A stretch of 64,000 nt of DNA from the NCBI GenBank assembly GCA_025093985.1, contig JACAAK010000003.1, positions 496,001-560,000 on the forward strand, read 5' to 3'. The DNA comes from Calvatia gigantea (Eukaryota > Basidiomycota > Agaricomycetes > Agaricales > Lycoperdaceae). Made by a program: the position numbers and the translations under genes. Of this stretch, positions 41,206 to 64,000 are shown in pieces. The notes beneath the pieces are model-generated. The model saw only the letters and a program-made list of their open reading frames with translations, had not been told where the DNA came from and ran no database searches. Numbering within the stretch: the first letter of the stretch is position 1; each line of letters starts with the position of its first letter.

Positions 41206-41376
41206 TGTTGTAAACCTTCATCTATTCATATCTGCTCTGTACTTGTCTGCATTCTACTTTGTCTTGTGCCTGTTTCACCTATTCCAGTCCAGCAATCTCT
41301 GAGTATTGACTCACAGTAACTACCATGCCATTATCGTTGGACATTTCATGTAGTTACCTCCATCCATTCAAATGAA
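41206..41376 (+). repeat. Truncated 5' LTR of chromovirus A
   Basis: Matches the first about 170 bp of the LTR at 46856-47161, then breaks off after CATCCATTCAA and continues directly in gag sequence (GAAGAGGAGTTAGGACAAG). Confidence 0.85.
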
Positions 41377-45842
<4,466 letters not shown>

Positions 45843-45848
45843 ACAAAC

Positions 45849-46837
45849 ATGCCCTCCTCCCAATCTAACTGCATCACCATCAACTCCCTCGTTCATCCCA
45901 CCCCCACCAGAATTTCCTCTCTCCCATTCCCCGAACTAGGCAACAGCCGAGCATCCACCCCCCAAGATACCTGTTATAACCTTGCAAAGACGCTGTCCCC
46001 AGCACAAGGCCTCCTTGAAGCCCTGCTCAAGGATGTCGACAAAGCAACTAGCAGTGAAATAGAAAACATTAATGCCCAAAACAAATGACTTGTTGTAAAC
46101 TGACACATCACCCTCGCCACTGCATGCATCACCTTTGCCAACATGTATGCAGGATTTACCAATGCATCCTCCTCCACCAGCCAGCATATCCCCACCATCT
46201 TCCGAGCCCTAGACCAATCCACCCTCACCCCCAGTGAACAAGATCATGTCCAAGGACTTCAGAGCAGAATCGACCTAGGCCTCGAGGTCTTCAATCACCT
46301 TGATATCGCCAACATCTTCCTTGAACTAACCAACATAGCCATGAAGTTGCTTGGGAGAGATAAGACAAACGAAGACCCTGATATCAACACTCTGGTTGAT
46401 AGGATCCACACTACCCTCTCTGAGTTACATGATACAGTTAATCCCACTCCACCATCTCGTGCTGACACCCCCATGGACGAAGAAGTCACAGTCTCCATGA
46501 AGGAGGAAGTCAATGTCCTCCATCATTTCATAAAAACCATCACCCCACTACAACTTGTATCAGTTTTTCTTCCACCCACAAGGTTCTGCACTGTGTTACT
46601 AGGACAAGAAAAGGACCAACACTACTGGAGCTCAATAGTCAAGAGTTATTGGAACAGTTCCACCACCACTGACTTCCCATTCAACGGCATCCCAGTCCCT
46701 ATCTGACAAGATGGCAGAAGCTACTTGCCTATTTCTTCATGCAATCAAACAATGGAAAATTCCTCATCATGGCCACCAAGAAAGCACTTGCTGCCACCAT
46801 AGTAAATGGAGACTTTGACAAGCTTTCTGAGGCATGA
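45849..46837 (+). pseudogene. Chromovirus A third ORF, unknown function
   Basis: ATG 45849 lies 6 nt after the pol stop. Conserved blocks across copies are AQGLLEALLKDVDKATSSEI, HIPTIFRALDQSTLTPSEQDH, LQSRIDLGLEVFNHLDIANI, DTPMDEEVTVSMKEEVNVL, HFIKTITPLQLVSVFLPPTRF, HYWSSIVKSYW and FPFNGIPVPI. The C-terminus is ATKKALAATIVNGDFDKLSEA. The N-terminal two thirds look helical. There is no signal peptide or membrane segment, so it is not an obvious env. Defects: TGA codons near 46086 and 46100, a TGA near 46704, and a 1-base loss near 46735. Homologues: 47936-48318, 49206-50168, 63585-64000. I do not recognise the family. Confidence 0.7.
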
Positions 46838-46855
46838 AGCCTGAGTGGGGGGTAT

Positions 46856-47161
46856 TGTTGTGAACCTTTGTCTATTCATATCCACTCCATACTTGTCTGC
46901 ATTCTACTTTGTCTTGTGCCTGTTTGACCTATTCCAGTCCAGCGATCTCCAAGTATTGACTCACAGTAACTACCACGCCATTATCGTCGGACGTTTCATG
47001 TAGTTACCTCCATCCATTCAACTGGATGCCTACCATATTTAAGCATACATACATACTCCTGTATTCAGTATGCTTAACCACTTAGTTCCTCTCCTCTTAT
47101 TCGCCCTCAAGTCTTAGCCTAAAGTTGCAACCTGAGGTTTACTCAGACTAAGGTTGTAACA
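46856..47161 (+). repeat. 3' LTR of chromovirus A
   Basis: 306 bp, TGTTGTGAACC to GTTGTAACA, preceded by a G-rich tract (GAGTGGGGGG). Followed by TTTAA. Confidence 0.9.
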
Positions 47162-47935: not shown

Positions 47936-48318
47936 TGGGTTTGACACCCCCATAGATGAAGAAATCACCATCTCCATGAAGGAGGAAGTCAATGCCCTAT
48001 ACTGCTTCATCAAAACCATTACACTACTACAAATTGTCTCAGTTTTTCTGCCACCTGCCTGCTTCTGCACTGTGTTACCCAGTCAAAAATGTGACCAACA
48101 TTACTGAAGCTTGATAGTCAAGAACTACTGGGAGAACTCTACCATCACTGAATTCCCCTATGAAGGCATTCCAGTCCCTATCTGCCAAGACAGTTGAAGC
48201 CACTTACCTGTCTTCTCCACACAATCCCACAGTGAAAAATACCTAATTGGCACCACCAAGAAAGCCCTTGCCACAGCCATAGTTCATGGTGACTTCAATG
48301 AGCTTCCTGAGGCATGAA
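47936..48318 (+). pseudogene. Chromovirus B fragment: C-terminal part of third ORF
   Basis: Matches copies A and C from DEEITISMKEEVNALY through FIKTITLLQIVSVFLPPACF to the terminal DFNELPEA. It is truncated at its 5' side near 47936 and contains stop codons. It is followed after a purine tract by a full LTR. Confidence 0.75.
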
Positions 48319-48335
48319 GCCTAATTGGGGGGTAA

Positions 48336-48630
48336 TGTTGTGGTTTTCACTGTTTCTATTGCACTACCATACTCATCTCCATTCCATGTAAATGTTCATC
48401 TATTTCTGTTTGAGCAATCTCCAAGTATTGACTCATATGCTACTATACCATTGTTATTGGACATTTCATGTAGTAGCTCTATTCATTCAACTGAATGTCC
48501 TTCAGTATTTAAGTATACATACATCCACCTGTATTCAGTATGCTTAACCACCTGGTTTCTCTTTCCTTACTCACCCTCAAGACTTAGCCTAAGTTGCAAC
48601 CTGAGGTTTTATCAGACTAAGGTTGTAACA
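48336..48630 (+). repeat. 3' LTR of chromovirus B fragment
   Basis: 295 bp, TGTTGTGG to GTTGTAACA, same family as 46856-47161 but more diverged. No matching 5' partner in the window. Confidence 0.85.
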
Positions 48631-48891
48631 GGAATATGCCAAAAAAAAGGATGTGTCAGACAAGTTGAGAGTACTTACCAATACTCTTACCATCTGGAAA
48701 CCCTACTTGCAAATCAGTCATCAAAATGTGTTCATAATGGATGGCAAAAACTGCAAGACTAATCATAGTTATTATAGTGGCTCAAACAAGAGTCATGATA
48801 TCATATTACTACCCACCTAGAATGTCCCACAAGCAGTGAGGGGACTAGCTGCCCTACAGATGACATTGAACATCCAGGTCTTGTTATGACC

Positions 48892-49187
48892 TTAGTCTGA
48901 TAGAACCTCAGGTTGCAACTTGGGCTAAGTCTTGAGGATGAGTAAGGGGAGAGAACTAGGTGGTTAAGCATACCAAATACAGGAGAACATATGTACACTT
49001 AAATATAGAGAGGGTCTTCCAGTTGAATAGAAGGAGTTACTACATGAAACATCTGATGACAATGGCATGGTAGTATGTGAGTCAATACTTGGAGATCACT
49101 AGGGACTGGAATAGATGAAACAGGTATAGAAGAGATGGAAATGGAGATGAGTATGGTAATGTGATAGAGATGGTGAAAACCACAACA
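48892..49187 (-). repeat. 3' LTR of chromovirus C
   Basis: 296 bp on the minus strand, starting TGTTGTGGTTTTC and ending GGTCATAACA; closest in its start to the LTR of B. Confidence 0.85.
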
Positions 49188-49205: not shown

Positions 49206-50168
49206 TCATGTCTCAGAAAGCTCATCAAAGTCACCATGGATCATGGCTGTGGCAAGAGCTTTCTTGGTGGCACCAATAAGGTACTTTCCACTGTTGGATC
49301 ATGGGAAGAAGATGGGTAAGTAGCTTCAACCATCTTGGTGGATAGAGACTAGGACACCTTTATATGGGAATTTGGCAATAGTGGAGTTTTCCCAGTAATT
49401 CTTGACTATCAAGCTCCAGTAATGTTAGTCACATTCTTGACTGGGTAATACAGTATGGTAGCAGGTAGGTGGCAGAAAAACCAAGACAATTTGTGGTGGT
49501 GTAATGGTTTTGATGAAATGGCATAGGACATTAACTTCTTCCTTCATGGAGACAGTGACTTCTTCATCCATAGGGGTGTCAGCTTGGGTGGTTGTCTTAG
49601 GCAGGTTGACTATGTCATAGAGATCTTTTAGAGTCAAATGGATTCTATTGATGAGTTCTTCAGTGCTGGCATCATCAGGAGTGGTGTTATGGCCTAGAAG
49701 GTTGGAGGCAATATCTCCTAGCTCTAGGAAGATTTCAGTGATATTGAGGTTCTTGAACACCTCAAGCACAAGGTTGATTCTGCTTTGCAGACTGTTTACA
49801 TGGTTTTGTTCAGATGGGATGAGGGGTGATTGGGCAAGGGTATAGAAGATGGCAGGGATATGTTTGCTCATGGAGATAGAGGCATTTTCAAACCCTGTAT
49901 ACATGTTGGTGAATGTGATGCATGTGGTGGAGAGTATAATAAGTTGGTTGGTGTTAAGCCTTTTGTTCTGGGCTGTAATGGTTGTGAGTTCTGCATTGGT
50001 AGCATTACTGACATCTCTGAGTAGGTCTTCTAGGAGGCCTTGAGCTAGTAATGGTGTTGTGGCCATATTGAAATGTGTGCTACTTGGGGTGGAAGCTTTG
50101 CTATTGTCTGGTTCAGGTATTGGGATGGACAAGATTCTGGTTGAGTTGGGGTGAATGAGGGAGGACAT
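49206..50168 (-). pseudogene. Chromovirus C third ORF, best-preserved copy
   Basis: The 963-nt frame (320 codons) on the minus strand is open for the first 247 codons, starting MSSLIHPNSTRILSIPIPEP. TAA at 49425, then TGA near 49325 and 49300, interrupt the end, but no frameshift is needed to reach the terminal DFDELSET. Blocks shared with copy A include MKEEVNVLCHFIKTITPPQI. The start matching A's ATG is changed (ATA) about ten codons upstream, so translation here would begin later. An open frame of this length beside a decayed pol suggests that it was under selection until recently. Confidence 0.7.
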
Positions 50169-50216
50169 TGTGATACAGCTAGATTGAGAGGCAGATATGT
50201 CTAGTGGGCTTGTTTG

Positions 50217-51430
50217 TTAGTTGGCTTATTGGATGCTTTTTTGGATTTTCTGTCCCTCTTTTTATAGATATCCTCCAGATGCCTTTTTAGGTAGTTCCGT
50301 ATAGCTTCTGCATTTCTAAGGTTAGATTCTGCTGTCCACATATCTTCTTCATTGCTATATTCTTTCCAATATACTAGGAACTGATATCTCTGTCCACATT
50401 TTTGTCATCCTTAGATTTTGTCTACTTTGTACTCTTCTTTATTGTTGATGATCACTGGGTCAGATGCTGGTGTATGTCTTTGGCTCAGGAACTCTGCCTT
50501 GTGTACTGGTATTAAAAGTTGTTTATTGAACACATTGTAAATTGCCCATCCTTCTGGCAGGTCAAGCTGGTATGCTACTTCCCCTATTTTTTTCCCTTAA
50601 TATGGAAAGGTCCATACCTTTTTTGGCCTAGCTTCTTTGATGTTTGTTTAGTATGGATGTTTGTGTTTTCAAGCCACATTTCATTACCAATTTGGTATGT
50701 CTTGGTATGGAGTCTACTATTGTCATGCTGTTGTTTCATCTTTTCCTGGTATGATTGCAATGCTGATGAGGCCTTATCTTGGGCAGTCTGTAGGTATTTC
50801 AGGAACTCCATTGCCATAAGGTTGTTGGTTGTTTCACTGCTCCTTCCTTTCCATGGGTGTCTTCTGTAGTTTAGGAAGAACAGTGTTTTCTTTGTTCCTC
50901 CATGTTGTTTATCATTGTAATGGGATTCTGCTATTGGAAGTCATTCTGCCCAGTCATTTTGGTTGTAGTTGCAGTATAGGTAGATATAGATCTCCACTTC
51001 CCTATTGATACATTTGGTTTGTTCATCTGTTTGGAGATGATATGCTGTTGACAGGTTGTGTTCTATGCCAAGTCCTTTGAATAGTTCTTTGGTGAATTCT
51101 GATGAAAATTGAGGTCCTTGGTCACTGAGTATCTTTTTTGGCAGTCCATGTAGTTTCCATATTTCATCTCAATAAATTCATGTGATGTCTTTGGATGAAA
51201 CATCTGTTGTTGTCACTATGAGTCATATCATTTTTGTAAAGCAGTTGACAATGACTAGTATTACATCTTTTCCTTCTGATTCTGGCAGGGGTATGATCAT
51301 GTCAATGCTGATTTCCTTCCATGGCCCATTTAGCACAAAAAGAGGATATAGTGGTGATTTAAGCAGAGCTGTCCTTGTCTTGCTTCTCTGACATGCTTGG
51401 TATCCTCAAGTGTATCTCTTTATATCCTTG
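50217..51430 (-). pseudogene. Chromovirus C pol 3' part: integrase core and chromodomain
   Basis: Read on the minus strand from 51430: integrase DDE region with SDQGPQFSSEF (the Gln codon CAA at 51118-51120), the C-terminal segment AYQEKMKQQ-like (SYQEKMKQQHDNSRLHT, 50584-50817 frame), then a chromodomain with WKEYSN-like residues at about 50290-50470. Pol stop is TAA, 50217-50219. It contains stops and indels. Confidence 0.8.
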
Positions 51431-52354
51431 TGTTACAAATATCAATATTTATGACATTATTAATGTCAAGAACAATGATGTAATCAATGACATCATAATC
51501 AGTTATATAATAATCAATATTGTATATTGATTATACAATGATTTATACAACATCTCTTAAGACTTGTATAATGTAAAGACATACATCAGAAGTCTTAGCA
51601 TTAACAGTATAACAGGATCAAGTCATGTACTCAGTCATATAATCACTACACTACAACATGTATAGTTACTTGAAGCACGACTAAATATCTTAGCATAATC
51701 CATACAATAAGATAATAATAATAGATTAAGTATTATTCTAATACTTAATATGATCTAGAACTACGACGAAAGTCTAGTAACAATCTAGACTAAGACTAGA
51801 GCAATCCAGACATAATCTATACTTAGAATTTAACTAGGCTTACTGAGACGTATCTAGAATATACCTAGACTAGACCTAGACTTAATAGGTTATAATTAGA
51901 ACTCCATTGTTCCACTAATATAGGAACTTAGATAATACTTCAAAGTCGTACCACTTCAAAGTCATACCACTTTTAAATACCATATATGGACAAGTAACAT
52001 ATCAATACAGTATAATACAATAGTACACCATTATAGTATATAAACCCCTCGACTTGACCAGTAGACCCCATTGTTTCTACTTGGTTAGGTGGAGACTCAA
52101 TCTATAACTCTTATCATTATCAATCTATGATCTGAACTTAAGAACCTCTTCTCAGCAATTAAGCTTTACTTCATAATAAGATAGGAGTTATATATTGAAG
52201 GTTCAAGACCTCTGATTGTAAGATGTAAGGTTATTTATAGTTACATTGTAAGTAACTATATTTAGCCAATAAGCCTTTGAGAAGGAGTCCTCTTTGATAT
52301 CATCTGCAGATAGATATCAGGTCAGCGAAGGACAAAGCTGATCTCACTATAACA
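51431..52354. mobile_element. Solo LTR inserted in chromovirus C integrase
   Basis: 924 bp, TGTTACAAAT to CTATAACA, very AT-rich with GTATATAAACCCC near 52038. Flanks CCTTG and CTTTG are a near-perfect 5-bp duplication. Removing the insert and one flank rejoins the integrase zinc-region coding sequence seen in copy A. No internal region, so it probably arose by LTR-LTR recombination. Confidence 0.8.
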
Positions 52355-52710
52355 CTTTGTGTATGGTTGGCCACCAATAGTCCCAGGTGATTAGCTCTGA
52401 CATCTTATGTTGCCTTAGATGCCCTGTATTTGGGGCATTGTAGTATTGTTGTAGGACTTCTTCTCACAGTTTTTGGTTGGGTGGCATATATGCACTACTC
52501 CCATTATAGACCACCCCATTGTCTTCAGTAAATCTTGATTCTTCCTTTAATAGTTCTGTAGTGACCAACATTTCAGGTCAAGGATCTTCTTGTATTTTCT
52601 CCAGGAATACTGGCTTCAGGAACAGTTCAGCTTGTAATAGCACTGTATCATCAGTGTTTTCTGTTTGTAACCAGCTCTTCCTGATTATAGTGACTAATTT
52701 GTCTTCTGTT
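52355..52710 (-). pseudogene. Chromovirus C pol, end of RNase H to start of integrase
   Basis: The minus strand corresponds to copy A at about 44265-44605: a GWxxP-type linker, the DKLVTII-like segment next to the D insertion point, and the start of the HHCC zinc region. It ends at 52710, where copy D begins. Confidence 0.75.
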
Positions 52711-53014
52711 TGTTGTGAACTTTTGTCTATTCACATCCACTCTGTATTTGTCTGCATTTTATTCTGTCTCGTATCTGTTTCATCTATTCCCACCCAGTAA
52801 TCTCCAAGTATTGACTCATAGAACTACTATGCCATTGTCATCAGATGTTTCATGTAGTTACCTCCATCCATTCAACTGGATGTCCTTAGTATTTAAGCAT
52901 ATACACATACTCCTGTATTCAGTACGCTTAACCACCTAGTTTCTCTTCCCTTACTTGCCCTCAAGACTTAGCCCAAGTTGCAACCTGAGGTTTACTCAGA
53001 CTAAGGTCATAACA
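52711..53014 (+). repeat. 5' LTR of chromovirus D
   Basis: 304 bp, TGTTGTGAAC to GGTCATAACA. The primer-binding region follows (TTTGGTTAAGTATCCCC); I could not assign its tRNA. Confidence 0.9.
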
Positions 53015-53103
53015 TTTGGTTAAGTATCCCCACCTCACCTTGCAAAAGGAAAAGGCTGAAACAGGCCTGAACAAACAATGAACCCAGAAGCTAGTTTATA
53101 AGC

Positions 53104-54245
53104 TTGAACCTAGATGAATATAGAGAACCAAATCTCGAAGTCACAGACAACAAGTCAGAAACATCAGACAAAGAAGAAACAGGGAACCCTGAAGTACCTA
53201 CAGAAACAACCAAACACAACGAACCTGGAGAATACATGCAAGGAACAAACCCAGTAGAAGAAGAAGTTATATCAGAACTTCTAAATGAACTTGACTTAGT
53301 AGAAGAAGAGTTAGGACAAGAACAGGAGGAATCAGAATCAGACAAAACAAGCTCAGAAGATACCAAATCAGAAATAGAGATGATGGACAATACTGTAGCC
53401 ACCGCTCCAGCATTAGTAACAACACCAAGTGGAAAGGGCTTAGTGTCTGACCCAGGATTCTTTGATAGAACCCAAACTAAGTTTGACAACTGGTGAAGAG
53501 CAATGACACTCTTCATGAAGTTCAACAAGATTGCTTTGGCCAATGACCAAGTCATAGTGGTTCTAGCCAGGCTGCGAGGAGGCACAGTGGAAGCATATGT
53601 GGCCATGAAAGCACTAGCCATCTTAGAATCTGAAGACTCAGTAGACTAGAAGGTCTTCTCCAAGGAGTTCAGAAGAACCTTCTCAGACAATGCCTCAAAC
53701 AGCAAAGCCGAATGGCAGATTGAAAAATTCAAACAAGAAAACCGAAACACTGCTGACTACCTAATCAAATTTGAGGTCCTAAAAAACAAAGCCAAGACCA
53801 ATAGCAAACATGCCATGTTCTTACTTAGAAAGAATGCCCAACAGGACATCATACACATGATTACTGGCTATCCACCTTTGGCCAGGCCAGACACATATGC
53901 AGAATGGAAGGAAGCCATACTCTCCATCAGACAAGGATACAAAGCATTTGAGTACCAAGGAGACAAGAAAACCAACACCAGCACCACTTATGAAGGAATA
54001 GGTGAACCTATGGAGATAAGAAGTAGGTGTCACATCTTCAATGACAAAGGAGAACTGAAATGCTACAACTGTGGCATTTTCAGCTACATTGCCAAAGATT
54101 GCAAGAAGCCCAAGGGGTTAACATGCTACAATTGCAGCAAGAAAGGATACATAGCCAAAACTTGCACAGCACCCAAGAAGATCCAGTCTGAGGAATAGAA
54201 GAAACCAATGTAGAAGAAAAGAAGGATTTTTCCAAAGACTCTGAG
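53104..54245 (+). pseudogene. Chromovirus D gag
   Basis: It gives the N-terminal acidic part missing in copy A (EYREPNLEVTDNKSETSDKEE, LLNELDLVEEELGQEQEE), then PGFFDRTQTKFDNW, LARLRGGTVEAYVAMKALAI, RKNAQQDIIHMI and two knuckles. In these the zinc pattern is changed (CYNCGIFSYIAKDC, CYNCSKKGYIAKTC: both His replaced by Tyr). Stops occur near 53494 and 53647, and a 1-base loss near 54185 shifts the frame. The start codon is not clear. Loss of the zinc histidines by C-to-T fits the decay pattern. Confidence 0.8.
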
Positions 54246-54550
54246 TAGGTGCTACCTCGAGAGTCAAGAAACTTGTATCTAGGATATCAGACAAATTCTA
54301 TATGATTCCCCAAAGAAGAAAGCGCAAACTAAACCTGCAAGGAAAAATAAAGATGGCAAAAAAGGAGATCATGGTGAACACAATCATAGACTCAGGATGT
54401 ATGACCAGCAGTATCAGCAAAAAACTAGTGGATGAAGAAGGGCTACCCACCCAAAAACTGGAATAGCAAATCTTGGTACTAAATGCAGATGGGACACCAA
54501 ATCAAGGCAGAAAAGTAACAGAGACAACCACAATCAACATAGACATCCAA
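54246..54550 (+). pseudogene. Chromovirus D pol, protease part
   Basis: Corresponds to copy A 42322-42616: SRVKKLVSRISDKFY, then TIIDSGCMTSSISKKLVDEE (catalytic D-S-G) and the start of the next block. It is cut by the solo LTR at 54551 within the codons for DIQGH. Confidence 0.8.
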
Positions 54551-55182
54551 TATTACATGCATTACCTTACTTTGTAACTGGGCCTGGATCGTCTCCACTC
54601 AGGGAGAGGTTCAATGCTATAGCCCAGAAGTATTCGACAAGTCTCAATGACTTCTGTGCAGGCTTTGGATCGCTCCCTTGAGTAGAAGCTCACGCTTGCC
54701 TGAGAAGTCTGAGTTAAGTGTCACTGCAGTCCCCAAGGTTGTTAACCTTGTAGCAGATGAGCAAAGATAAGGAAGCTTATTACTAGAATAACCTAAGGTA
54801 ATACAAAGTACTACTTAAGGTTTATATACTAGCTACGAGTAAGAGATGGGAGATTACGTAGTAAGCAGATATGAGTCAATGAGAAACTACTATGGGTTAA
54901 TTGGTAATATAAGGAATTATGGGGATAAGTGAAATGAATAGAGAAGAAGGAATATGAGTCATAGGAAGACAGAGACAAGTAAATAGAAGTACGATGATGA
55001 GAAAAGGTGAAGGTGAAACAGGAACATGATTCAGAATGAATCATAAGAAGTAAAGGTAGAAGTACACATGATAAATAAATAAAGAACGGACCAGGGTATA
55101 GGGCAAAGATAAGAAAGGAAAAGTCTAGATAGAAGGTTAATACGTTAATGGGAGAGTCCGGGGATGTGGTAAGTTCATAACA
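54551..55182. mobile_element. Solo LTR inserted in chromovirus D protease region
   Basis: 632 bp, starting TATTAC (expected TGTTAC) and ending CATAACA. Perfect 5-bp duplication TCCAA (54546-54550 and 55183-55187). Contains a TATA-like TTTATATACTAG near 54820. Ends resemble the solo LTR at 51431 but the length and body differ. Confidence 0.8.
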
Positions 55183-55921
55183 TCCAAGGGCACAAAGAAC
55201 AAATTGAGGCCTCAGTCATACAATTACAAGACAGAGCAGAAGTCTTCTTAGGACATGATTGGCTAGTCAAGCATAATCCAGAGGTAGACTGGAACAATGG
55301 AGAAATCAAATTCACCTGATGCCCACCAGACTGCCAATTTCCCCATTGGAACATTCCTATCACAGAAAAAATATGAAGCATGGCCACTACAGAAGACCTA
55401 TGGAAACAAAAAGATGAACCAGACCCAACCAAACCAGAAGACCTACCAGACTACATACAACCATTTACATACCTATTCAACAAAACAACATTCAATAAAC
55501 TCCCAGAATGAACTGAATGGGACCATGAGATAATCCTAACAGAAGATGCCCCAAAAGAAATAAGTGCAGGGACATACAACATGGCAGTCAAAGAACAGGA
55601 CGAACACAAAGCATTTATCAAGGAGAACCTAGAATTGGGACAAATACAACCATCAAAGTCCCCATATGCAGCACCAACATTCTTCATTCCCAAGAAAGAT
55701 GGATCCAAAAGGCTAATCCAAGACTACAGACAATTGAACAATATGGTGGTCAAGAATAAGACACCATTACCAAGAATCAGTGAAGTAATTGACAAACTTG
55801 GAAAGGCAAAGTATTTCAATAAGCTCAACATCATCTGGGGATACAACAATGTCAGGATCAAAGAAGGAGATGAATGGAAAGTAGCATTCCTTACCAATGA
55901 GGGACTTTTCAAACCAACAGT
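55183..55921 (+). pseudogene. Chromovirus D pol, protease end and first half of RT
   Basis: VFLGHDWLVKHN, then FIKENLELGQIQPSKSPY, APTFFIPKKDGSKRLIQDYR, LNIIWGYNNVRIKEGDEWK and FLTNEGLF. The frame is cut at 55921 by element E, just before the FGLSNSP motif, which resumes at 61094. Confidence 0.9.
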
Positions 55922-55938
55922 TTAGAGATCTGCCACTA

Positions 55939-56025
55939 ATGAGGTACGAGTGACGGCAGCAGAGTGCTGTCTTTGTAGGACCAGTCACGGTCACGAAGGA
56001 CAGCACTCCTGTCCTTCTACCTCAT
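55939..56025. promoter_or_regulatory. Imperfect hairpin near the 5' end of element E
   Basis: ATGAGGTA (55939-55946) pairs with TACCTCAT (56018-56025), and AGTGCTGTC (55963-55971) with GACAGCACT (55999-56007), around a central loop. YR elements use terminal inverted or split repeats, and this may be part of such a signal; that role is inference. Confidence 0.6.
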
Positions 56026-56137
56026 CGGCGTGGCCTGGTCCTGCTCGCCTGTCCTCAGGCTCTCGCTTTTCTACACTGCTTCGCTATATTTATTTACCCT
56101 CGAGTCTCCTACTCTCTGGCAACACTCACACGTCGCA

Positions 56138-57630
56138 ATGCCAGCCAATGAGGAACAAGACCAACAACCCCCCGACTACGCAGGGGAACAATACCTTGTA
56201 GCAAGGCAACAGCTGATGATAGGAACCGGCCTATCCGAAGAAGAGGTCATCCTCCAACTCACAGAGGCCTGGACAGCAGCTCAGCGTAGACGCTGGCAGC
56301 ATGAGGAGGACCGAAACCAGCAACCCCCGAACGAGAGGGAACCCCAACCAGAGCCGCAGCCGGAACCACTGCCTCTTCCACCAGGGGACAAGAGGAGAGT
56401 ACCCCGCATCGAAGAAGGACTCATGATCTCCGACAAAAGGGCTCTCGAACCTTCAGACTATGCCCTCTCCAAGCTCCGTAAATTCCAGTACGTTGAGCTT
56501 TGGTACTTCACGGTACATGGCTGCAGAGAAGCTGCCCATCTGGGACTTCCCGCAAACCCCGACACACTTTCCTTCACATGCGTTGACAACGTGCTCGAGC
56601 TACAACCATCACGGGCAATCTCACACTCGAAGGACGTCATCCAAGATCAGCACCTCTCCTGGGCAGACATGACAGTGGCGAAGAATAACATGATTGACCA
56701 CATGCGCGGCTGTGGTTGGTCCAATGACTACCTCGTCCCGCTAATGAGATTCTACATCGCACTCGACACCCATCCGATTCGAAAGGAACGCCACGGTGAC
56801 CAAGCTCTCCTCGCCTATCAGGCAGAAGTCCGTAGGAGCTGGCACCAAGAGATGCTGAAAGGAGAGGAACACAAGCTCTTCGACATCTCGATCATCAGTC
56901 AGGAGCGCCTAAAAGCCATCGAAGACGATCTTTACAAGCAACGCCGAGAGCAAACCCTAGCTGAGTCAGTTTTTCTCTCCTCATTTCCCAAAAACATGTG
57001 GCTCACCTTTTTCCTCTCCCCCCCCCTTTTCTGCCTTTTCCATATCTCCCCGCTCCAACCGCCCCGCTCCGCTGCAAACCCTGCCTGCCGTGGTCTTGAC
57101 TACTCAATGGGGTGATTAGTCTAACACAGGCGATCCACCTGGTGACGCCCAGGACTACACGTTATTCCAACCAAGCCAGGGCCCGCACCTCACAACGCAA
57201 CCGCTCCCCTAGCCCCGCAGCAATGTCCTCCCTTCCCCGAAGGAGCCGCATGAAGAGAAGACGCTCTCCGTCACCACCTCCCTCAGACGAGGAGCTACAG
57301 TCCTCACCCTCCAAGAAGCAGGCCACCAAGAGGTCCTTTCGAAATCCATCCTCACGTGTCTTCTCAGTCTGCCCCATGTGCCTCGGCCGCCAACAACATG
57401 ATGTTGCAAACTGCAGCGCCAGCCTTCGCTGGGATGGCAAAGAGAAAAACAGGTGCACTCGCAACCAGCGAGGACACCTCAAGGCCCCAGACGGCACCAT
57501 TCTCTGCACCGATTGGCAGAAGCCCCGAGGGTGCGACAACAACACCCATGACAAGAAGCACCAGTGCTCAGGGTGTGGGGCCACAGACCATGGAGCTCAG
57601 GACTGTCCTCGAGCACAAGCGATCATCTAA
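56138..57630 (+). CDS. Element E gag-like protein with a spliceosomal intron
   Basis: Exon 1 runs 56138-56964 (ATG in GCAATGCC; MPANEEQDQQPPDYAGEQYL) and holds an acidic/Pro linker and a helical core (LSKLRKFQYVELWYFTVHG, HMRGCGWSNDYLVPLMRFYI). A 188-bp intron (56965-57152, GTCAGT donor, CTAAC branch at 57121-57125, GCCCAG acceptor) joins in frame to exon 2 (57153-57630). Exon 2 encodes a basic Ser/Arg/Pro stretch and Cys-rich zinc motifs (CPMCLGRQQHDVANC; CSGCGATDHGAQDC). Unspliced, the frame stops at 57115 and the zinc part is lost. Both exons are fully open. Role: nucleocapsid-like RNA binding (inference from position and motifs). Confidence 0.65.
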
Positions 57631-59584
57631 CGTGCTCTCCCCTTACAAGCTAGGAGCCTGGACCAAGCACCTCGCTGCCTCAGGTCTCATGGCCAAATAC
57701 CCATCCCTCTTGTCTATGTTACATAGTGGTTTCCTCGCAGGCATCCCACCTATCCTCGCTACTTACATTCCTGATAATCGTCCATCCTTAATTGATCACC
57801 TTGATGAATTCCAAAAAATAACTCAGTCAGAGTTCGAGAAGGGGAGATACCTCGGCCCCTTCTCGAAAAGTGAGGTCACAGAGCTAATCGGTCCTTTCCA
57901 AACCTCTCCACTAAGCATCATCCCCAAACCAGGCAAACCTGGAAAGTTCAGGCTCATCCAGAACTTCTCACACCCACACTCGCTAAGTGCACCAGTAACT
58001 TCGATCAATAGTGTTATCCTCTCAGAAAACTACCCATGCATGTGGGGCACGTTCGGCACAGTGTCACTCTTGATCTGGCAGCTCCCACCCGGATCAGAGG
58101 GAGGCACTCGAGACGTCAAAGAAGCCTACCGAACAGTACCACTCCACCCTTCACAATGGCCAGGGATGGTTGTAAAATTAAATGGTGCTGACTCCTTCGC
58201 AATTGACACCCAGAATGCGTTCGGCCTAGCCTCAGGAGCAGGTGTATATGGCTTAATTGCTGATGCAGGCGTTGACATCATGAGAGCAAACGGCCTTGGT
58301 CCAGTTACGAAATGGGTGGATGATCACCTATTCCGCCGAATCCGTCGCAACTTCCTCACCGAGTACAACTTACTCAGAGCACAATTAACACAAAAAATCG
58401 CCCGTAATGGAGGGCTCAGACACAACAAAGGGCACCTCTGGTTCCGAGGGGACACAATGGACAATGGACGTTTCGAAGAATATGACAATGACAGTACCAT
58501 TCCCATCATAGATCAATTACCTCTCACAGCCCTACAACGTAACCAACATGATGCCCAATTCACCTATTCATTTGATGACATTGATATGTTCTCAGAAGAG
58601 CTAGGCATCCCTTGGGAACAAGAAAAGGACGTTCCATTCACCACTTCATTTCTTTTTATTGGGCTTGAATGGAACATCAAAGAACGTACAGTCGCTCTCC
58701 CTTCACCCAAAAGGAGAAAGTACCTGGCAGCCATTGACGAGTGGTTGAGTAAAACCACACATACCCTCGACGAAGCACAGAAACTCCATGGAAAACTCCT
58801 GCATGCCACACTTGTACTCACGAGTGGGCGCCCTTACCTAATCCACATTGAGGCTTTCCTAGCCGTTTTTCATAACTCTCCATTCAAACCACGCACACCT
58901 CAGAAAGCCCTCAACAATGACCTCCAATGGTGGATACAAGCACTCTCCCCAATCACAGTCGAGCGACCTCTCCCAGGACCAGTCATCGTCCTCGACACAG
59001 CAGCTTATTCCGATGCTAGCTCGGGAGTGGGCCTTGCAATTACCATCGGCAACCATTGGCGAGCCTGGAGACTCCTCCCAGGTTGGAAAGCTGAAGGGAG
59101 AGATATTGGCTGGGCAGAGGCAGTGGCCTTCTACTTCCTTGCAGCAACGATCGCAGCTCAGCACCCAAATGGGGGCCACTTCAGACTCTACGGTGACAAC
59201 CAGGGAGTGGTTGAAGGCTGGTGGAAAGGGAGGAGTCGAAATAAACCCTCAAACGAAGTCTTCAAATGGATCAACAAACTGGCTGAGGATTCTAGATCCT
59301 CCTTCTACACACGATATGTCCCCAGTGAGTTCAACCCAGCAGATGGCCCCTCAAGAGGAAAGTACGAGAGCACGGCACTCCTCCTCCCAGCACCCCCTAT
59401 CCCACATGCACTCCGGCACTTCGTTGTGGACTTCGATCATCCCCTCCTACCCCTTGAACAGAAACTCGCCAGGGAGAGCAAGCTACCGCTCCCTAAACCA
59501 AAACCTCCCCACCAGTCAAACCGAGCCCAAAACTTCCTTGACCAGCAAGCAGAGGACCTCGCGTCTCAGATCAAGACCTGGTAG
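57356..59584 (+). CDS. Element E reverse transcriptase-RNase H
   Basis: The open frame of 742 aa has no stop. The first about 85 residues overlap gag exon 2 in another frame and are probably not translated. RT motifs: FQTSPLSIIPKPGKPGKFRL, TRDVKEAYRTVPLHP (first Asp), FGLASGAGVYG and KWVDDHLF (catalytic VDD). RNase H: YSDASSGVGLAITIG, GWAEAVAFYFLAATIAA, FRLYGDNQGVVEGWW, and YVPSEFNPADGPSRG near the end. This RNase H start and the VDD form are typical of YR retrotransposons. Translation may begin by a +1 shift or re-initiation near 57600. It copies the element RNA. Confidence 0.88.
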   Translation: MSSQSAPCASAANNMMLQTAAPAFAGMAKRKTGALATSEDTSRPQTAPFSAPIGRSPEGATTTPMTRSTSAQGVGPQTMELRTVLEHKRSSNVLSPYKLGAWTKHLAASGLMAKYPSLLSMLHSGFLAGIPPILATYIPDNRPSLIDHLDEFQKITQSEFEKGRYLGPFSKSEVTELIGPFQTSPLSIIPKPGKPGKFRLIQNFSHPHSLSAPVTSINSVILSENYPCMWGTFGTVSLLIWQLPPGSEGGTRDVKEAYRTVPLHPSQWPGMVVKLNGADSFAIDTQNAFGLASGAGVYGLIADAGVDIMRANGLGPVTKWVDDHLFRRIRRNFLTEYNLLRAQLTQKIARNGGLRHNKGHLWFRGDTMDNGRFEEYDNDSTIPIIDQLPLTALQRNQHDAQFTYSFDDIDMFSEELGIPWEQEKDVPFTTSFLFIGLEWNIKERTVALPSPKRRKYLAAIDEWLSKTTHTLDEAQKLHGKLLHATLVLTSGRPYLIHIEAFLAVFHNSPFKPRTPQKALNNDLQWWIQALSPITVERPLPGPVIVLDTAAYSDASSGVGLAITIGNHWRAWRLLPGWKAEGRDIGWAEAVAFYFLAATIAAQHPNGGHFRLYGDNQGVVEGWWKGRSRNKPSNEVFKWINKLAEDSRSSFYTRYVPSEFNPADGPSRGKYESTALLLPAPPIPHALRHFVVDFDHPLLPLEQKLARESKLPLPKPKPPHQSNRAQNFLDQQAEDLASQIKTW

Positions 59585-60809
59585 CCCTCATCCAAAGATC
59601 GGACATCCTTTACAGGCTCGGACACAATCACTACCCCCTACCCCAGCCCCCTACAGTCCCATCCTCACCCCTACCCCGTCCTCACTACGTCCACATGTCC
59701 TCACTAAAGAACGGCTACTCAAATGGTTGCCAGCAAGACCACGACCAAATGCCGAAATTAGCTCACCCAATGCACAAATGCTCGTAACATTTAACACAGC
59801 ACAGGACGAAGACAGGTTGAGACACCTCCTCTCCCTCAGTTGGGACGAATCCACTCTCTCTACCTATGGTTCAGGCCTACTCGTATTTCATGTCTTCTGC
59901 GACTCCCGAGCTATTGACGAAGACCAGCGAGCACCCACTTCCTATCAACTCTTATCAACCTTCATCTCGAGCCTCGCAGGCTCTTACTCCCGAACCTCCA
60001 TTTCGAACTACATAAATGGGCTAAGGGCATGGCACATTCTACACAGAATGACATGGGAAACCAATGAGGCAGAGCTCGAAGTCCTACTCCGCACCTGCCT
60101 GAAGACAGCCCCGAGTTCCTCCAAAAAGGCCAAACGAGCACCATGGACCATAGAGATCATTGAAAAACTCCGAGCGGAGCTTGACTTCTCTATCCACGAG
60201 CACGTCGCCGTATATGCTTGCCTCACCACAGCCTTCTATGCCGCAGCACGACTTGGTGAACTTACAGTACCCAACCTGAAAGCCTTCGACCCGGCCAAAC
60301 ACCCCAAAACGTCGGACGTGCGTACAGAAGAAGATCGGAATGGTCTCACCTCCACGATCATTCACATCCCAAGCACAAAAGCGTCCCAGCACATAGGTGA
60401 AGACATATACTGGACTCAACAACGAGGCCTTTCAGACCCGAAAACGGCCTTCGACAACCATTTAGACTTCAACAAGCCCCCAGACGGAGCTCACCTCTTC
60501 TCCTACCCTCACGGCTCCAGCCACCGCCCCCTCTCACGAAAAACCTTTCTGGACACCGTAAACAAGGCAGCACGAAAAGCAGGGCTCGAGCAACTCCATG
60601 GCCATGGCATCTGAATAGGTGCCACCCTCGAATACCTTTTACGGGGCCTCTCATTCGAAGCAATGAAGGTGAAAGGACGTTGGGCTAGCGACGCCTTCAC
60701 AGGATACCTCACAAACCACGCTCAAATCCTGGCCCAACACACACATGCAACCTCAGAGTTGCATGATTCCATTTCCCGGATCACCATCCCACAGCTCCGC
60801 CGCCACTAA
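59585..60809 (+). pseudogene. Element E tyrosine recombinase with stop at its catalytic arginine
   Basis: The frame is open from 58917 (overlapping RNase H) to 60614, but recognisable recombinase sequence starts near 59700. Features: N-terminal SAM-like part (STLSTYGSGLLVFHVFCDSR), first catalytic Arg in FYAAARLGELTV, Lys in STKAS, the H-x-x-R box HGHGI*IGATLEYLLRG with TGA at 60612-60614 exactly at the Arg, then KGRWASDAFTGYL with the nucleophile Tyr at 60705-60707. It ends with TAA at 60807. TGA is one C-to-T from CGA. This is the only inactivating change I see in E. It would integrate the circular cDNA. Confidence 0.85.
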
Positions 60810-61093
60810 CTCGACTACTTCAGTGGGTACTAATCTTTGGCTTGATGTGTCGAGACTAATTTTCCTGGGTATCGCAGCCAAAACCCGGTACCCCTCGTTG
60901 TCCCTGCCAGGCAGGGAAGCCCTCTCAGGCTTTCGCCCATTAGTAGTCGCACACCTCACTCCGATCACACGTCGTATGCTACAGTTGTCACCTTTGCATT
61001 CTAGTCACCTCCTTTACATTGTCCCTAACTACCGAATTACCAAGTTTCCGCTTGCCTACAGCTCTGGAGTGGCCACGACAGGCCAGACAAAGA
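60810..61093. other. 3' end of element E, non-coding
   Basis: Contains an imperfect inverted repeat (GGGTACTAATCTTTGGCTT near 60827 against AGCCAAAACCCGGTACCC near 60878). It should carry the 3' terminal repeats of the element. No coding frame. Confidence 0.5.
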
Positions 61094-63578
61094 CATGTAC
61101 TTTGGCCTAAGCAACTCACCAGGAACATTCTCCAGAATGATGACAAACATCTTCCACAACCTCCTACAAAACAGAGATATCATAAATTATATGGATGACT
61201 TTGCCATCCTGGGTGACACCAAAGAACAATTAAGAGAATGAAAAATACAATTTCTAGAACGAGCGGCTCAGTACAACCTATGCTTCAAACAAACCAAATG
61301 CATCTTCGATGTGGAAGAAATCCCAATGCTAAGAGTCAGGGTAGGACATGGACAAATTGAAATGGAAGAGGAAAAAGTGAAATCAGTATGAGACTGGCCT
61401 GAACCCAAAAACACCAAAGGAATAGAGAGGTTCCTGGGTTTTGCAAATTACTATCAATGTTTCATCAAAAACTTCAGCAAAATTACAGGGCCATTAAACA
61501 AACTCAAAGGAGTAGCCACATGGGAATGGACACAAGAACACCAAGCCTCATTCGACCAACTCAAGAAATATATCACCAAGGAACCCATCTTGACATTACC
61601 ACAAAGGCAAGGCCAATTCAGAGTAGAGGTTGACACATCAGACTATACACTAGGAGGTGTACTATCACAGCTACAGGAAGACAAATGGCACCCAATCGCT
61701 TTCACATCACAAACACTATCAATAGCAGAATGAAACTACAAAATATACAACAAAGAATTGTTAGCCATTATCCATGCTCTGAAAGAATGGAGACACTACC
61801 TGCTGGATGCTGAAGAAAAGTTTGAAATCTGGACTGACCATGAAAACCTAAAATACTACCGAGAACCACAGAAGCTAAATGGATGACAAGCCCAATAGTA
61901 CCTACAATTACAAGACTATGACTTTGTACTATGACATGTGCCTGGAAAAACAAACACAAAAGCCAACCTATTATCCCGAATTCACCAAATACCAGAGGAG
62001 CAGGAAGACAAACTAGTCACTATGATCCACGAAAGCTGGCTCCAAGCAGAAAGCATGAACAACTCTGTGCTCCTACAAGCAGAGTTGTTCCTTGAACTAA
62101 CATTCCTAGAACAAATCTGCAATAGGACACAGTGTGAAACAATAGTACTCAATGAACTAAGGAAACAGAAGTCCAAACTTACCGAACACTACAAAGTTGT
62201 CTACAAACAAAATAGTGCATATGTTCCACCCAATTAAAAGTTATGAGAAGAAATTCTAACACAATACCATGATGTTCCAGATGCAGGACACCCAGGCCAA
62301 CATAGAATGACAGAACTAATCAATCACAATTATTGGTGGCCAACAATGTGGAAAGATGTAAAAAGGTACATCCAAGGGTGTTAAGCCTGCCAGAGGAACA
62401 AAACAAGAATGACACTGCTCAAATCACCACTACACTCTCTCCCAGTACCAAATGGACCTTGGGAAGAAATTAGCATTGATATGATTGGACCATTACCAGA
62501 GTCAGAAGGGAAAGACGTGATACTGGTCATCATAGACCACTTCACAAAAATGATACAGCTCACAGTGACAACCACAGATGTTTCATCCAAAGGCATTGCA
62601 AAAATATATTGAGATGAAATATGGAAGCTACATGGACTACTGAGGAAAGTAGTCAGTGACTGAGGACCTCAATTCACATCAGAATTCACCAAAGAACTAT
62701 TCAGAGGACTTGGCATAGAACAAAACCTATCAACAGCATACCGCCTGCAAATGGATGGACAAACAGAATGCATTAACAGAGAAGTAGAAACTTACATCTG
62801 TCTATATTGCAACTACAACCAGGATGACTGGGCAAAATAGCTCCCCATTGCAGAATTCCAGTATAATGACAAGCAACATGGAGGAATATGGGAAACACCA
62901 TTCTTCTTAAACTATGGAAGAAACCCATGGAAAGGCAAGAACAAACTAATAACAAACAACCCAGTGGCCACAGAATTCCTAAAACAACTTCAGACTGCTC
63001 AAGATGACACCGCATCAGTGCTATGTGCATATCAAGAAAAGATGAAACAGCAATACAACCACAATAAGACTAATGCCAAAACATACCAAATAGGTGTTGC
63101 AGTGTGGCTGGAGAACACAAACATCCATACCAATCAGACATCAAAGAAGCTAGGCCAGAAACAGTATGGACCTTTCCTTATTAAGGAAAGAATAGAAGAA
63201 GCAGCATATCGGCTAGTACTACCCAATGAATGGGCCATCCATGATGTATTCAACAAACAACTCCTGACACTATCACACCAGGCCAAGTTCCCAAGTCAAA
63301 AACAGCCATCAGTGCCCAATCCAGTGATCATCAACAATGAAGAAGAGTATAAAGTAGAAGAGATCCATGGACAAAGGAAACAGGGAAGGGGCTACCAATT
63401 CCTAGTCTACTAGAAGGAATATAGCAACAAGGAGGATACGTGAACAGTGGAGTCCAACCTGGAGAATGCAAAAGATGCCATATGAGACTACCTAAAAAGG
63501 CATCTGGAGGATACCCATAAAAAGGGGGGCAGAAAACACAAAAAAGCATCAAACAAACAACCCATACAAGAGAACTAA
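61094..63578 (+). pseudogene. Chromovirus D pol, second half: RT end, RNase H, integrase, chromodomain
   Basis: Resumes at CATGTAC with YFGLSNSPGTFSRMM and YMDD (61190s), then FLGFANYYQCFIKNF, RNase H (VDTSDYTLGGVLSQLQEDK, DHENLKYYREPQK), the integrase zinc region (AGHPGQHRMTELINHNY), core DMIGPLPESEGK and SD*GPQFTSEF (TGA 61 kb side at 62661-62663). It ends with the chromodomain (YKVEEIHGQ, GRGYQFLVY; two Trp codons now stops) and TAA at 63576-63578. Stops are scattered through it, so it is inactive. Confidence 0.9.
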
Positions 63579-63584
63579 ACAAGT

Positions 63585-64000
63585 ATGCCTTCCTCCCAAC
63601 TCAACCATATTGCTATCGACTCTCTCATTCATCCCACCCCTACCAGAATCTCATTCCTACCATTTCCAGAGCCAGGCAGCAGTAGAGCACTAGCTTCCCA
63701 AGGAACTTGCTACAACCTCACCAAAATGCCATCCCCAGCACAAGGCCTCCTCAAAGCCCTGCTTAAGGACATTGATAAAGCAACCAGCAGTGAGATAGAA
63801 AACATTACTGCCCAAAACAAATGATTAGTTGTAAATCGACATATCACTCTCACCACTGCCTATATCACCTTCACTGATATGTATGCAGGTTTCACCAATG
63901 TGTCCTCCTCCACCAGCCAATACATCCCCACTATCTTCTGAGCCCTAGATCAATCCACCCTCATCCCTAGTGAACAAGATCGTGTCCAGGGCCTCCAAAG
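63585..64000 (+). pseudogene. Chromovirus D third ORF, partial (continues past window)
   Basis: ATG 63585 lies 6 nt after the pol stop, the same spacing as in copy A. The frame reads MPSSQLNHIAIDSLIHPTPT, then AQGLLKALLKDIDKATSSEI, a TGA near 63822, then THITLTTAYITF-like and SQYIPTIF blocks with another stop near 63939. It is about 85% similar to copy A over this stretch by eye. Confidence 0.75.

What the first reader, a model, noticed from the sequence alone, without database searches (positions are those of the whole stretch)
45849..46837. A chromovirus family with a conserved third ORF placed 6 nt after the pol stop
Seen: copies A (45849-46837), B (47936-48318), C (49206-50168, minus) and D (63585 onward) all carry the same unrecognised protein after the chromodomain. 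In A and D the pol TAA and the ATG are separated by exactly 6 nt. Copy C keeps 247 open codons although its pol is damaged. Known: most Ty3/Gypsy chromoviruses encode only gag and pol; env-like third ORFs in other lineages carry membrane segments. Inference: this is a lineage-specific accessory protein without env features, perhaps translated by termination-reinitiation or as part of a readthrough product.
Basis: partly seen in the sequence, partly recalled or inferred. Interest (0 to 1): 0.8.

Follow-up and report, generated by a model that had tools for sequence, protein, structure and literature searches.

The report
Fungal retrotransposon's conserved orphan third gene
A very abundant jumping gene in what appears to be a fungal genome carries, besides its usual two genes, a third gene of unknown type that natural selection has preserved and that begins only a few letters after the second gene ends, as if the ribosome stops and restarts there.

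Summary
Confirmed. The window lies in a 46-Mb assembly (a fungus, by inference). Its four copies belong to one Ty3/Gypsy chromovirus family: LTR-gag-pol(PR-RT-RH-INT-chromo)-ORF3-LTR. ORF3 encodes about 328 aa and is genome-wide: 151 and 122 scored matches. Of 40 near-full-length pol matches, 39 are followed by ORF3, whole or broken. Purifying selection on it equals that on the pol chromodomain core (pN/pS about 0.23 for both; CpG-biased neutral simulation about 0.6). It has no convincing Pfam, PDB, gag or transmembrane match. A 16-sequence profile finds nothing at E<=10 in a 5.8-billion-protein set where pol finds thousands of relatives. Of 73 copies, the pol-stop/ATG gap is 6 nt in 46 (all three stop codons), 7 in four, and 2 in three from a clade of ten sharing that junction; the rest are mostly damaged, but two sister copies have 15. 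ORF3 thus occurs in any frame relative to pol while staying next to its stop, favouring termination-reinitiation over readthrough. Its function is unknown; a low-dose accessory protein is most likely. Window copies A, B, D are broken; C lost its original start.

The parts
41206..41374 (+). element A, 5' LTR remnant (partial)
   Evidence: blastn with A's 3' LTR, 91% over 169 bp
41428..42318 (+). element A, gag (match starts at residue 110 of the query frame)
   Evidence: tblastn with gag of a genomic copy, 77%
42300..45842 (+). element A, pol (PR-RT-RH-INT-chromodomain), damaged by stops, ends with TAA
   Evidence: tblastn 74-76%; stops; Pfam domains of the genomic copy
45840..45848 (+). junction in A: pol TAA plus the 6 nt before the ORF3 ATG
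45849..46837 (+). ORF3 of A, broken (five in-frame stops, frame change near the end)
46856..47161 (+). 3' LTR of A, 18 nt after the ORF3 stop (edges approximate)
   Evidence: sequence
47943..48317 (+). copy B: ORF3 C-terminal fragment (residues 205-328), two internal stops
48323..48630 (+). LTR following copy B
48882..49187 (-). 3' LTR of copy C
49206..50198 (-). ORF3 of copy C (2-nt-gap subfamily); open for 247 codons from an internal ATG, 50168-49425; original start no longer ATG
50210..52715 (-). pol remnants of copy C
   Evidence: tblastn pieces
52710..53017 (+). 5' LTR of element D
   Evidence: blastn 85% to A's LTR
53053..54186 (+). gag of D
   Evidence: tblastn 66%
54206..55922 (+). pol of D, first part (matches in pieces)
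   Evidence: tblastn
61095..63578 (+). pol of D, second part, after a nested insertion at 55923-61094
   Evidence: tblastn
63585..64000 (+). ORF3 of D, cut by the window end, two in-frame stops in the visible part; 6-nt gap

Best explanation
ORF3 is a real third gene of a high-copy chromovirus family in a fungus. Shown: it is long, conserved, under purifying selection like that on the pol chromodomain core, found (whole or broken) behind 39 of 40 near-full-length pol copies examined, and placed 2, 6 or 7 nt after the pol stop in most readable copies. Inferred: it is translated from the genomic RNA by coupled termination-reinitiation, in which a fraction of ribosomes that finish pol restart at the adjacent AUG, whatever its frame. 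This gives a small amount of a soluble 36-kDa accessory protein that assists the element's own cycle (genomic RNA handling, assembly or resisting silencing are candidates). Which of these steps it serves is not shown.
For: Genome-wide copies. Of the 40 near-full-length pol matches, 36 have an ORF3 match just downstream (some of these with in-frame stops), 3 have a frameshifted or truncated one, and 1 has none and is cut in the pol tail (my tally). Mean pN/pS by divergence bin is 0.17, 0.15, 0.16 and 0.22 among 32 stop-free copies and 0.28 in the 2-nt clade, against 0.58-0.61 in a CpG-biased neutral simulation; pol chromodomain core (up to 48 codons) 0.22-0.23, ORF3 0.23-0.24 for the same pairs. 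Third codon positions differ most. Gaps in 73 copies: 46 at 6 nt (27 TAG, 13 TAA, 6 TGA), 4 at 7, 5 at 2, of which 3 lie in the 2-nt clade. The 10 copies with the 2-nt junction motif form one clade, support 0.999. Position -3 is A or G in 62 of 62 copies with an ATG. Termination-reinitiation is described for victoriviruses, hypoviruses and SART1 (PMC5972666, section 15).
Against: No RNA or protein data. Reinitiation after a long ORF usually needs a tethering signal; the calicivirus-type UGGGA core lies in the 120 nt upstream in only 1 of 62 copies. The one conserved fold, a G-run with the region of the AUG, is weak: 3 of 200 shuffles as low, covariation term -0.19; per-copy duplex mean z -1.2 over 62 copies. 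A spliced or subgenomic mRNA could also place a start right after pol. The spacing is not absolute: two sister copies with open ORF3 (L034, L038) have an earlier pol stop and a 15-nt gap; 7 more of 73 gave odd values in what I read as damaged pol frames, 2 of the five 2-nt values are of that sort too, and 9 gave none. Single close pairs reach pN/pS 0.42-0.51, inside the neutral range for low divergence (0.40-0.91). The function rests on inference only.
Confidence: 0.6

Rival explanations
1. ORF3 is expressed from a spliced or subgenomic mRNA, or from an internal promoter or ribosome entry site, as env-type third genes are. The short gap then only reflects compactness.
For: Spliced mRNAs express env-like ORFs in some plant elements (PMC7264820, passages) and CERV in Cer1 (PMC10309623, passages). 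Any frame relative to pol is allowed, as seen. A 15-nt gap in two sister copies with open ORF3 fits loose spacing.
Against: In the printed junctions no YAG acceptor stands at a fixed place just upstream: the YAG at the stop exists only where the stop is TAG, while other copies have TAA or TGA there (by eye). Compactness alone does not explain why the gap is 2, 6 or 7 nt in 53 of 73 copies and no overlap is seen outside the two copies with negative values (L019, L063), which I read as damaged.
Confidence: 0.22
2. Readthrough: the stop is sometimes decoded, giving a pol-ORF3 fusion that the protease may cut.
For: In the 6-nt copies ORF3 is in frame with pol and separated by a single stop.
Against: 7-nt copies and the 2-nt clade put ORF3 in other frames, and the 2-nt clade still shows purifying selection (pN/pS 0.28, maximum 0.34 over 45 pairs). 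All three stop codons occur, and the following bases differ between subfamilies.
Confidence: 0.08
3. ORF3 is an env-like membrane protein.
For: It has the env position, between pol and the 3' LTR.
Against: The highest 19-residue hydropathy is 1.03-1.66 among 32 stop-free copies, and only 1 of 32 reaches 1.6. No Pfam match better than E 0.05. The protein start is Ser/Pro/Asn-rich rather than a signal peptide (by eye; no predictor was run).
Confidence: 0.03
4. ORF3 is a captured host gene or passenger without a role in the element.
For: Captured ORFs are known in LTR elements (PMC5408684 abstract).
Against: No host homologue among the candidates scored in a database that includes fungal nr entries. 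Selection matches that on pol across subfamilies, and ORF3 follows 39 of 40 near-full-length pol copies.
Confidence: 0.04

Closest known systems
Fungal chromoviruses with an 'additional ORF of unknown function' (Novikova et al. 2010, PMC2864245, Fig. 3 legend)
   Same: Gypsy elements surveyed in fungi; the legend of the structure figure has a label for an additional ORF of unknown function.
   Different: The text read (section 5 and passages) does not say which element carries it, what its sequence is, or whether it is selected or coupled to pol. Identity with this ORF3 could not be tested.
Agaricus bisporus and other mushroom chromovirus pols (P0008 and relatives)
   Same: Pol 56% identical over the INT-chromo part; Armillaria, Trametes and Leucocoprinus 45-47%.
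   Different: No ORF3 relative turned up in the same database. Their DNA downstream of pol was not available.
Cer1 CERV (C. elegans LTR element, PMC10309623)
   Same: A non-envelope extra protein of an LTR retrotransposon, shown there to be needed for genomic RNA export.
   Different: CERV is made from a spliced mRNA and is 517 aa; no sequence comparison was made here.
Additional ORFs of plant LTR elements and ORF3s of bdelloid rotifer elements (PMC7264820, PMC11963269, PMC5408684)
   Same: Extra ORFs between pol and the 3' LTR, in some families kept in most copies.
   Different: Those described in what I read are env-like, antisense TRP28 genes, or enzymes (GDSL, DEDDy); this one is sense, soluble-looking and without a Pfam match.
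Stop-restart genes of victoriviruses, hypoviruses and SART1 (PMC5972666, section 15)
   Same: A downstream gene placed at the stop of a long upstream gene; victoriviruses and hypoviruses are viruses of fungi (recalled).
   Different: Those overlap or often overlap at the stop-start site; here 2, 6 or 7 nt lie between in most readable copies, and the enclosing element is an LTR retrotransposon.

Membership tests
Ty3/Gypsy chromovirus | LTRs; gag with zinc knuckles; PR-RT-RH-INT order; chromodomain at the end of pol | tested here: met
   One natural copy read in two pieces: LTRs of 307 bp, 98.7% identical; zf-CCHC x2, Retrotrans_gag and aspartic protease; RVT_1, RNase H, rve, Chromo E 2.2e-14
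Selected protein-coding accessory ORF of an LTR element | Purifying selection, not neutral decay | tested here: met
   Mean pN/pS well below the CpG-biased neutral simulation and equal to the pol chromodomain core
Selected protein-coding accessory ORF of an LTR element | Present in most copies of the family | tested here: met
   39 of 40 near-full-length pol matches are followed by ORF3, whole or broken
Env-like third ORF | Membrane segment(s) or signal peptide | tested here: not met
   1 of 32 stop-free copies reaches hydropathy 1.6; no Pfam match better than E 0.05; no signal-peptide predictor was run
Duplicated gag | Sequence relation to the element's own gag | tested here: not met
   BLASTP best E 0.34, hhalign probability 0.4%; a fold-level relation is not excluded
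Coupled termination-reinitiation gene | Start close to the upstream stop, frame-independent | tested here: met
   2, 6 or 7 nt in 53 of 73 copies, three frame relations; two sister copies have 15 nt
Coupled termination-reinitiation gene | Tethering RNA element upstream (TURBS or pseudoknot) | tested here: inconclusive
   UGGGA in 1 of 62; weak conserved pairing of a G-run with the region of the AUG in 20 copies chosen for the 6-nt gap
Coupled termination-reinitiation gene | Translation of the second ORF depends on ending at the first stop | not testable with these tools
   needs reporter or ribosome data

The most novel reading that the evidence does not exclude
ORF3 is a new protein family restricted to one lineage of mushroom chromoviruses. 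Its start codon is hidden by pairing with the G-run of the pol tail (codons for KKGG) some 45-65 nt upstream, so that only a ribosome finishing pol opens it. This would be a translational switch tying the dose of an accessory protein, perhaps one that opposes silencing or carries genomic RNA, to completed pol synthesis.
Probability: 0.12. Interest if true: 0.72.

Novelty: new variant of a known kind. Interest (0 to 1): 0.5.

Why it matters
Most Gypsy elements detected in fungal genomes are chromoviruses (PMC3248453 abstract passage), and most full-length ones were described with a fused gag-pol or with two ORFs (PMC2864245, section 5). A conserved orphan third gene in a very successful family suggests that a further step of the cycle needs its own protein. 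The stop-restart layout, with all three frames in use, is a natural experiment on coupled translation in fungal LTR elements and is directly testable with reporters.

Tried and rejected
Env: rejected (no consistent membrane segment). Gag duplication: no sequence relation. Pfam below threshold only: ZapA E 0.22 in one member, CCDC138 coiled coil E 0.051 in 2 of 16. The WAVE1 hit to PDB 3p8c (E 0.0095 with one sequence) fell to E 0.44 with an 11-sequence profile: read as chance. Structure: AlphaFold2 on window copy C with window pieces only gave mean pLDDT 45.5, a helical but unreliable model; no fold search was made. Homologues: none in the 5.8-billion-protein set among 5,832 and 7,994 candidates scored, none in viral contigs (58) or genome contigs (59). 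Pol relative P0003 was not found in the last two either (69, 70), so those two say little about fungi. Junction as TURBS: no. Synonymous-site conservation near the junction (16 of 18 copies kept): lowest pol bin at the pol end, but equally low bins elsewhere; not counted as evidence. Another chromovirus family in the genome (C2:278167, 50% to P0090) has a different pol tail and no recognised ORF3 in the piece fetched, but the place looks nested; not used. Because searches of the genome score only the best candidates, more distant ORF3 forms or ORF3-less sister families may be unseen. Novelty in print: searches (listings). The nearest is the Fig. 3 legend of PMC2864245. PMC3411680 and PMC5381629 have no hit for the terms tried.

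Full report
OBSERVATION. The window is G000:C23:496001-560000 of a 45.95-Mb assembly in 77 contigs. The fungal host is inferred from the element's pol, whose best named mushroom relative is Agaricus bisporus at 56%. Copies A, B, C and D encode one protein. A and D have TAA, six bases, ATG. A, B and D are broken, and C is open for 247 codons from an internal ATG.

ANATOMY. One natural copy elsewhere in the genome (L071 and L031, read as two pieces) has LTRs of 307 bp, 98.7% identical. It has a gag frame of 406 codons stop to stop with two zinc knuckles and a Retrotrans_gag match. A pol frame overlaps the end of gag and carries protease, RT, RNase H, integrase and chromodomain. Then come the pol stop, six bases, a 328-codon ORF3, 18 nt and the 3' LTR. 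In the window, element A runs 41206-47161. C lies on the minus strand, 52715-48882. D starts at 52710, has an insertion at 55923-61094 within pol, and leaves the window inside ORF3.

COPIES. ORF3 searches of the genome gave 796 and 878 loose first-look candidates, of which 150 and 122 were scored and 151 and 122 matches listed. By my count, 52 of the 122 rows span the protein (nearly) full length without a stop. Of the 40 near-full-length pol matches, 36 have an ORF3 match directly downstream, some with in-frame stops. The other four were fetched: three have a frameshifted or truncated ORF3, and one is cut in the pol tail and has no ORF3 match. So no ORF3-less form of this family, apart from that truncated copy, was seen in that sample.

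SELECTION. Sixty-seven of the 70 loci then held gave a near-full ORF3 and were codon-aligned. L001-L030 were taken as best matches to window copy C, L031-L070 mostly because their ORF3 was open or nearly so. Group means of dN/dS in the printed part were about 0.09-0.35 (that output was cut). Stop-free copies (32 of 67) have mean pN/pS 0.17, 0.15, 0.16 and 0.22 in rising divergence bins; single pairs reach 0.51 and 0.42 in the two closest bins and 0.28 in the others. The neutral simulation, using a CpG-biased spectrum of my own setting modelled, gives means of 0.58-0.61 (ranges 0.40-0.91 at low and 0.51-0.72 at high divergence). The same subfamily pairs give 0.22-0.23 for the chromodomain core of pol and 0.23-0.24 for ORF3 (all). 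Of 716 changes counted in the main subfamily, 486 are C>T or G>A, 291 of them at CpG. The stops in old copies thus look like decay after insertion.

JUNCTION. In 73 rows (70 loci plus window A, C, D; the winC and L001 rows are the same copy) the gap from pol stop to ORF3 ATG is 6 nt in 46 (27 TAG, 13 TAA, 6 TGA), 7 nt in 4 and 2 nt in 5. Nine gave other values and nine had no readable start or pol frame. Two of the nine, the sister copies L034 and L038, have an open ORF3 and an earlier pol stop 15 nt before it, upstream of the usual one; the other seven, and two of the five 2-nt values (L023, L067), I read as damaged pol frames. The remaining three 2-nt copies lie in a subfamily of 10 that all show the junction motif ACTARAYAT (seen by eye), a clade with support 0.999 that includes window copy C. 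The four 7-nt copies fall in at least two places on the tree; one of them, L046, may be a recombinant. ORF3 is therefore in frame 0, +1 or +2 to pol while the distance usually stays short. The 2-nt clade has mean pN/pS 0.28, so its ORF3 was used after the frame change, if the change happened once at its root. Position -3 is a purine in 62 of 62. In 20 copies chosen for the 6-nt gap, pol tails differ in length by indels, and a weak conserved pairing joins a G-run in the pol tail to the region of the AUG (energy -5.28; shuffled mean -0.93, sd 1.26; 3 of 200 as low; covariation term -0.19). A similar basic KRGG tail ends the metagenomic pols P0004 and P0006, so the G-run may serve something else.

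IDENTITY. No Pfam match better than E 0.05 in 16 members (earlier 17). The PDB matches weaken with a profile and are read as chance. Against the 5.8-billion-protein set, one sequence gave none at E<=0.01 among 5,832 candidates and a 16-sequence profile none at E<=10 among 7,994; the method needs shared short words. The INT-chromo part of pol found 4755 proteins at E<=1e-10, the best 73% identical. ORF3 is thus rare or fast-evolving relative to pol. Whether the close relatives have one could not be read, since their contigs were not available.

INTERPRETATION. The shown facts are a selected, family-wide third gene and a stop-start proximity independent of frame. The inferred steps are reinitiation, low output and an accessory role. 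CERV of Cer1 shows that a non-envelope extra protein of an LTR element can serve RNA export (PMC10309623, passages). That is a precedent of role, not of kinship. An anti-silencing role is suggested only by the heavy CpG decay of old copies.

NOVELTY. Additional ORFs in LTR elements, also in a fungal Gypsy survey, are in print (PMC2864245 Fig. 3 legend; PMC7264820 passages). Within the nine searches made, whose listings I saw, I found no description of this protein, nor of a frame-independent stop-start junction in an LTR element. Hence a new variant of a known kind.

Noticed in passing
window 55923-61094: A 5.2-kb GC-richer insertion splits the pol of element D and holds long, partly overlapping open frames (361, 172, 742 and 565 codons). 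Weak Pfam hits to a viral polymerase C-terminus (E 0.001, below its cut-off) and a phage integrase (E 0.13) hint at a DIRS-like element.
   Followed up: partly
window 45783-45794; junction alignment A4: The pol tail carries a conserved polypurine run (AAAAAAGGGGGC in A) some 45-65 nt before the ORF3 start. It resembles a polypurine tract as well as a pairing partner of the ORF3 start.
   Followed up: partly
L046: This copy has a main-subfamily ORF3 body but an N-terminus and 7-nt junction like another subfamily, which suggests recombination between subfamilies.
   Followed up: no
main-subfamily ORF3 copies (26 loci): Copies differ mainly by C>T and G>A, 291 of 486 such changes at CpG, as expected if the repeats are cytosine-methylated.
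   Followed up: partly
L072 (G000:C2:275800-278400): A different chromovirus family, 50% to a Sanghuangporus pol, with another pol tail and no recognised ORF3 in the piece, apparently nested with another element.
   Followed up: partly
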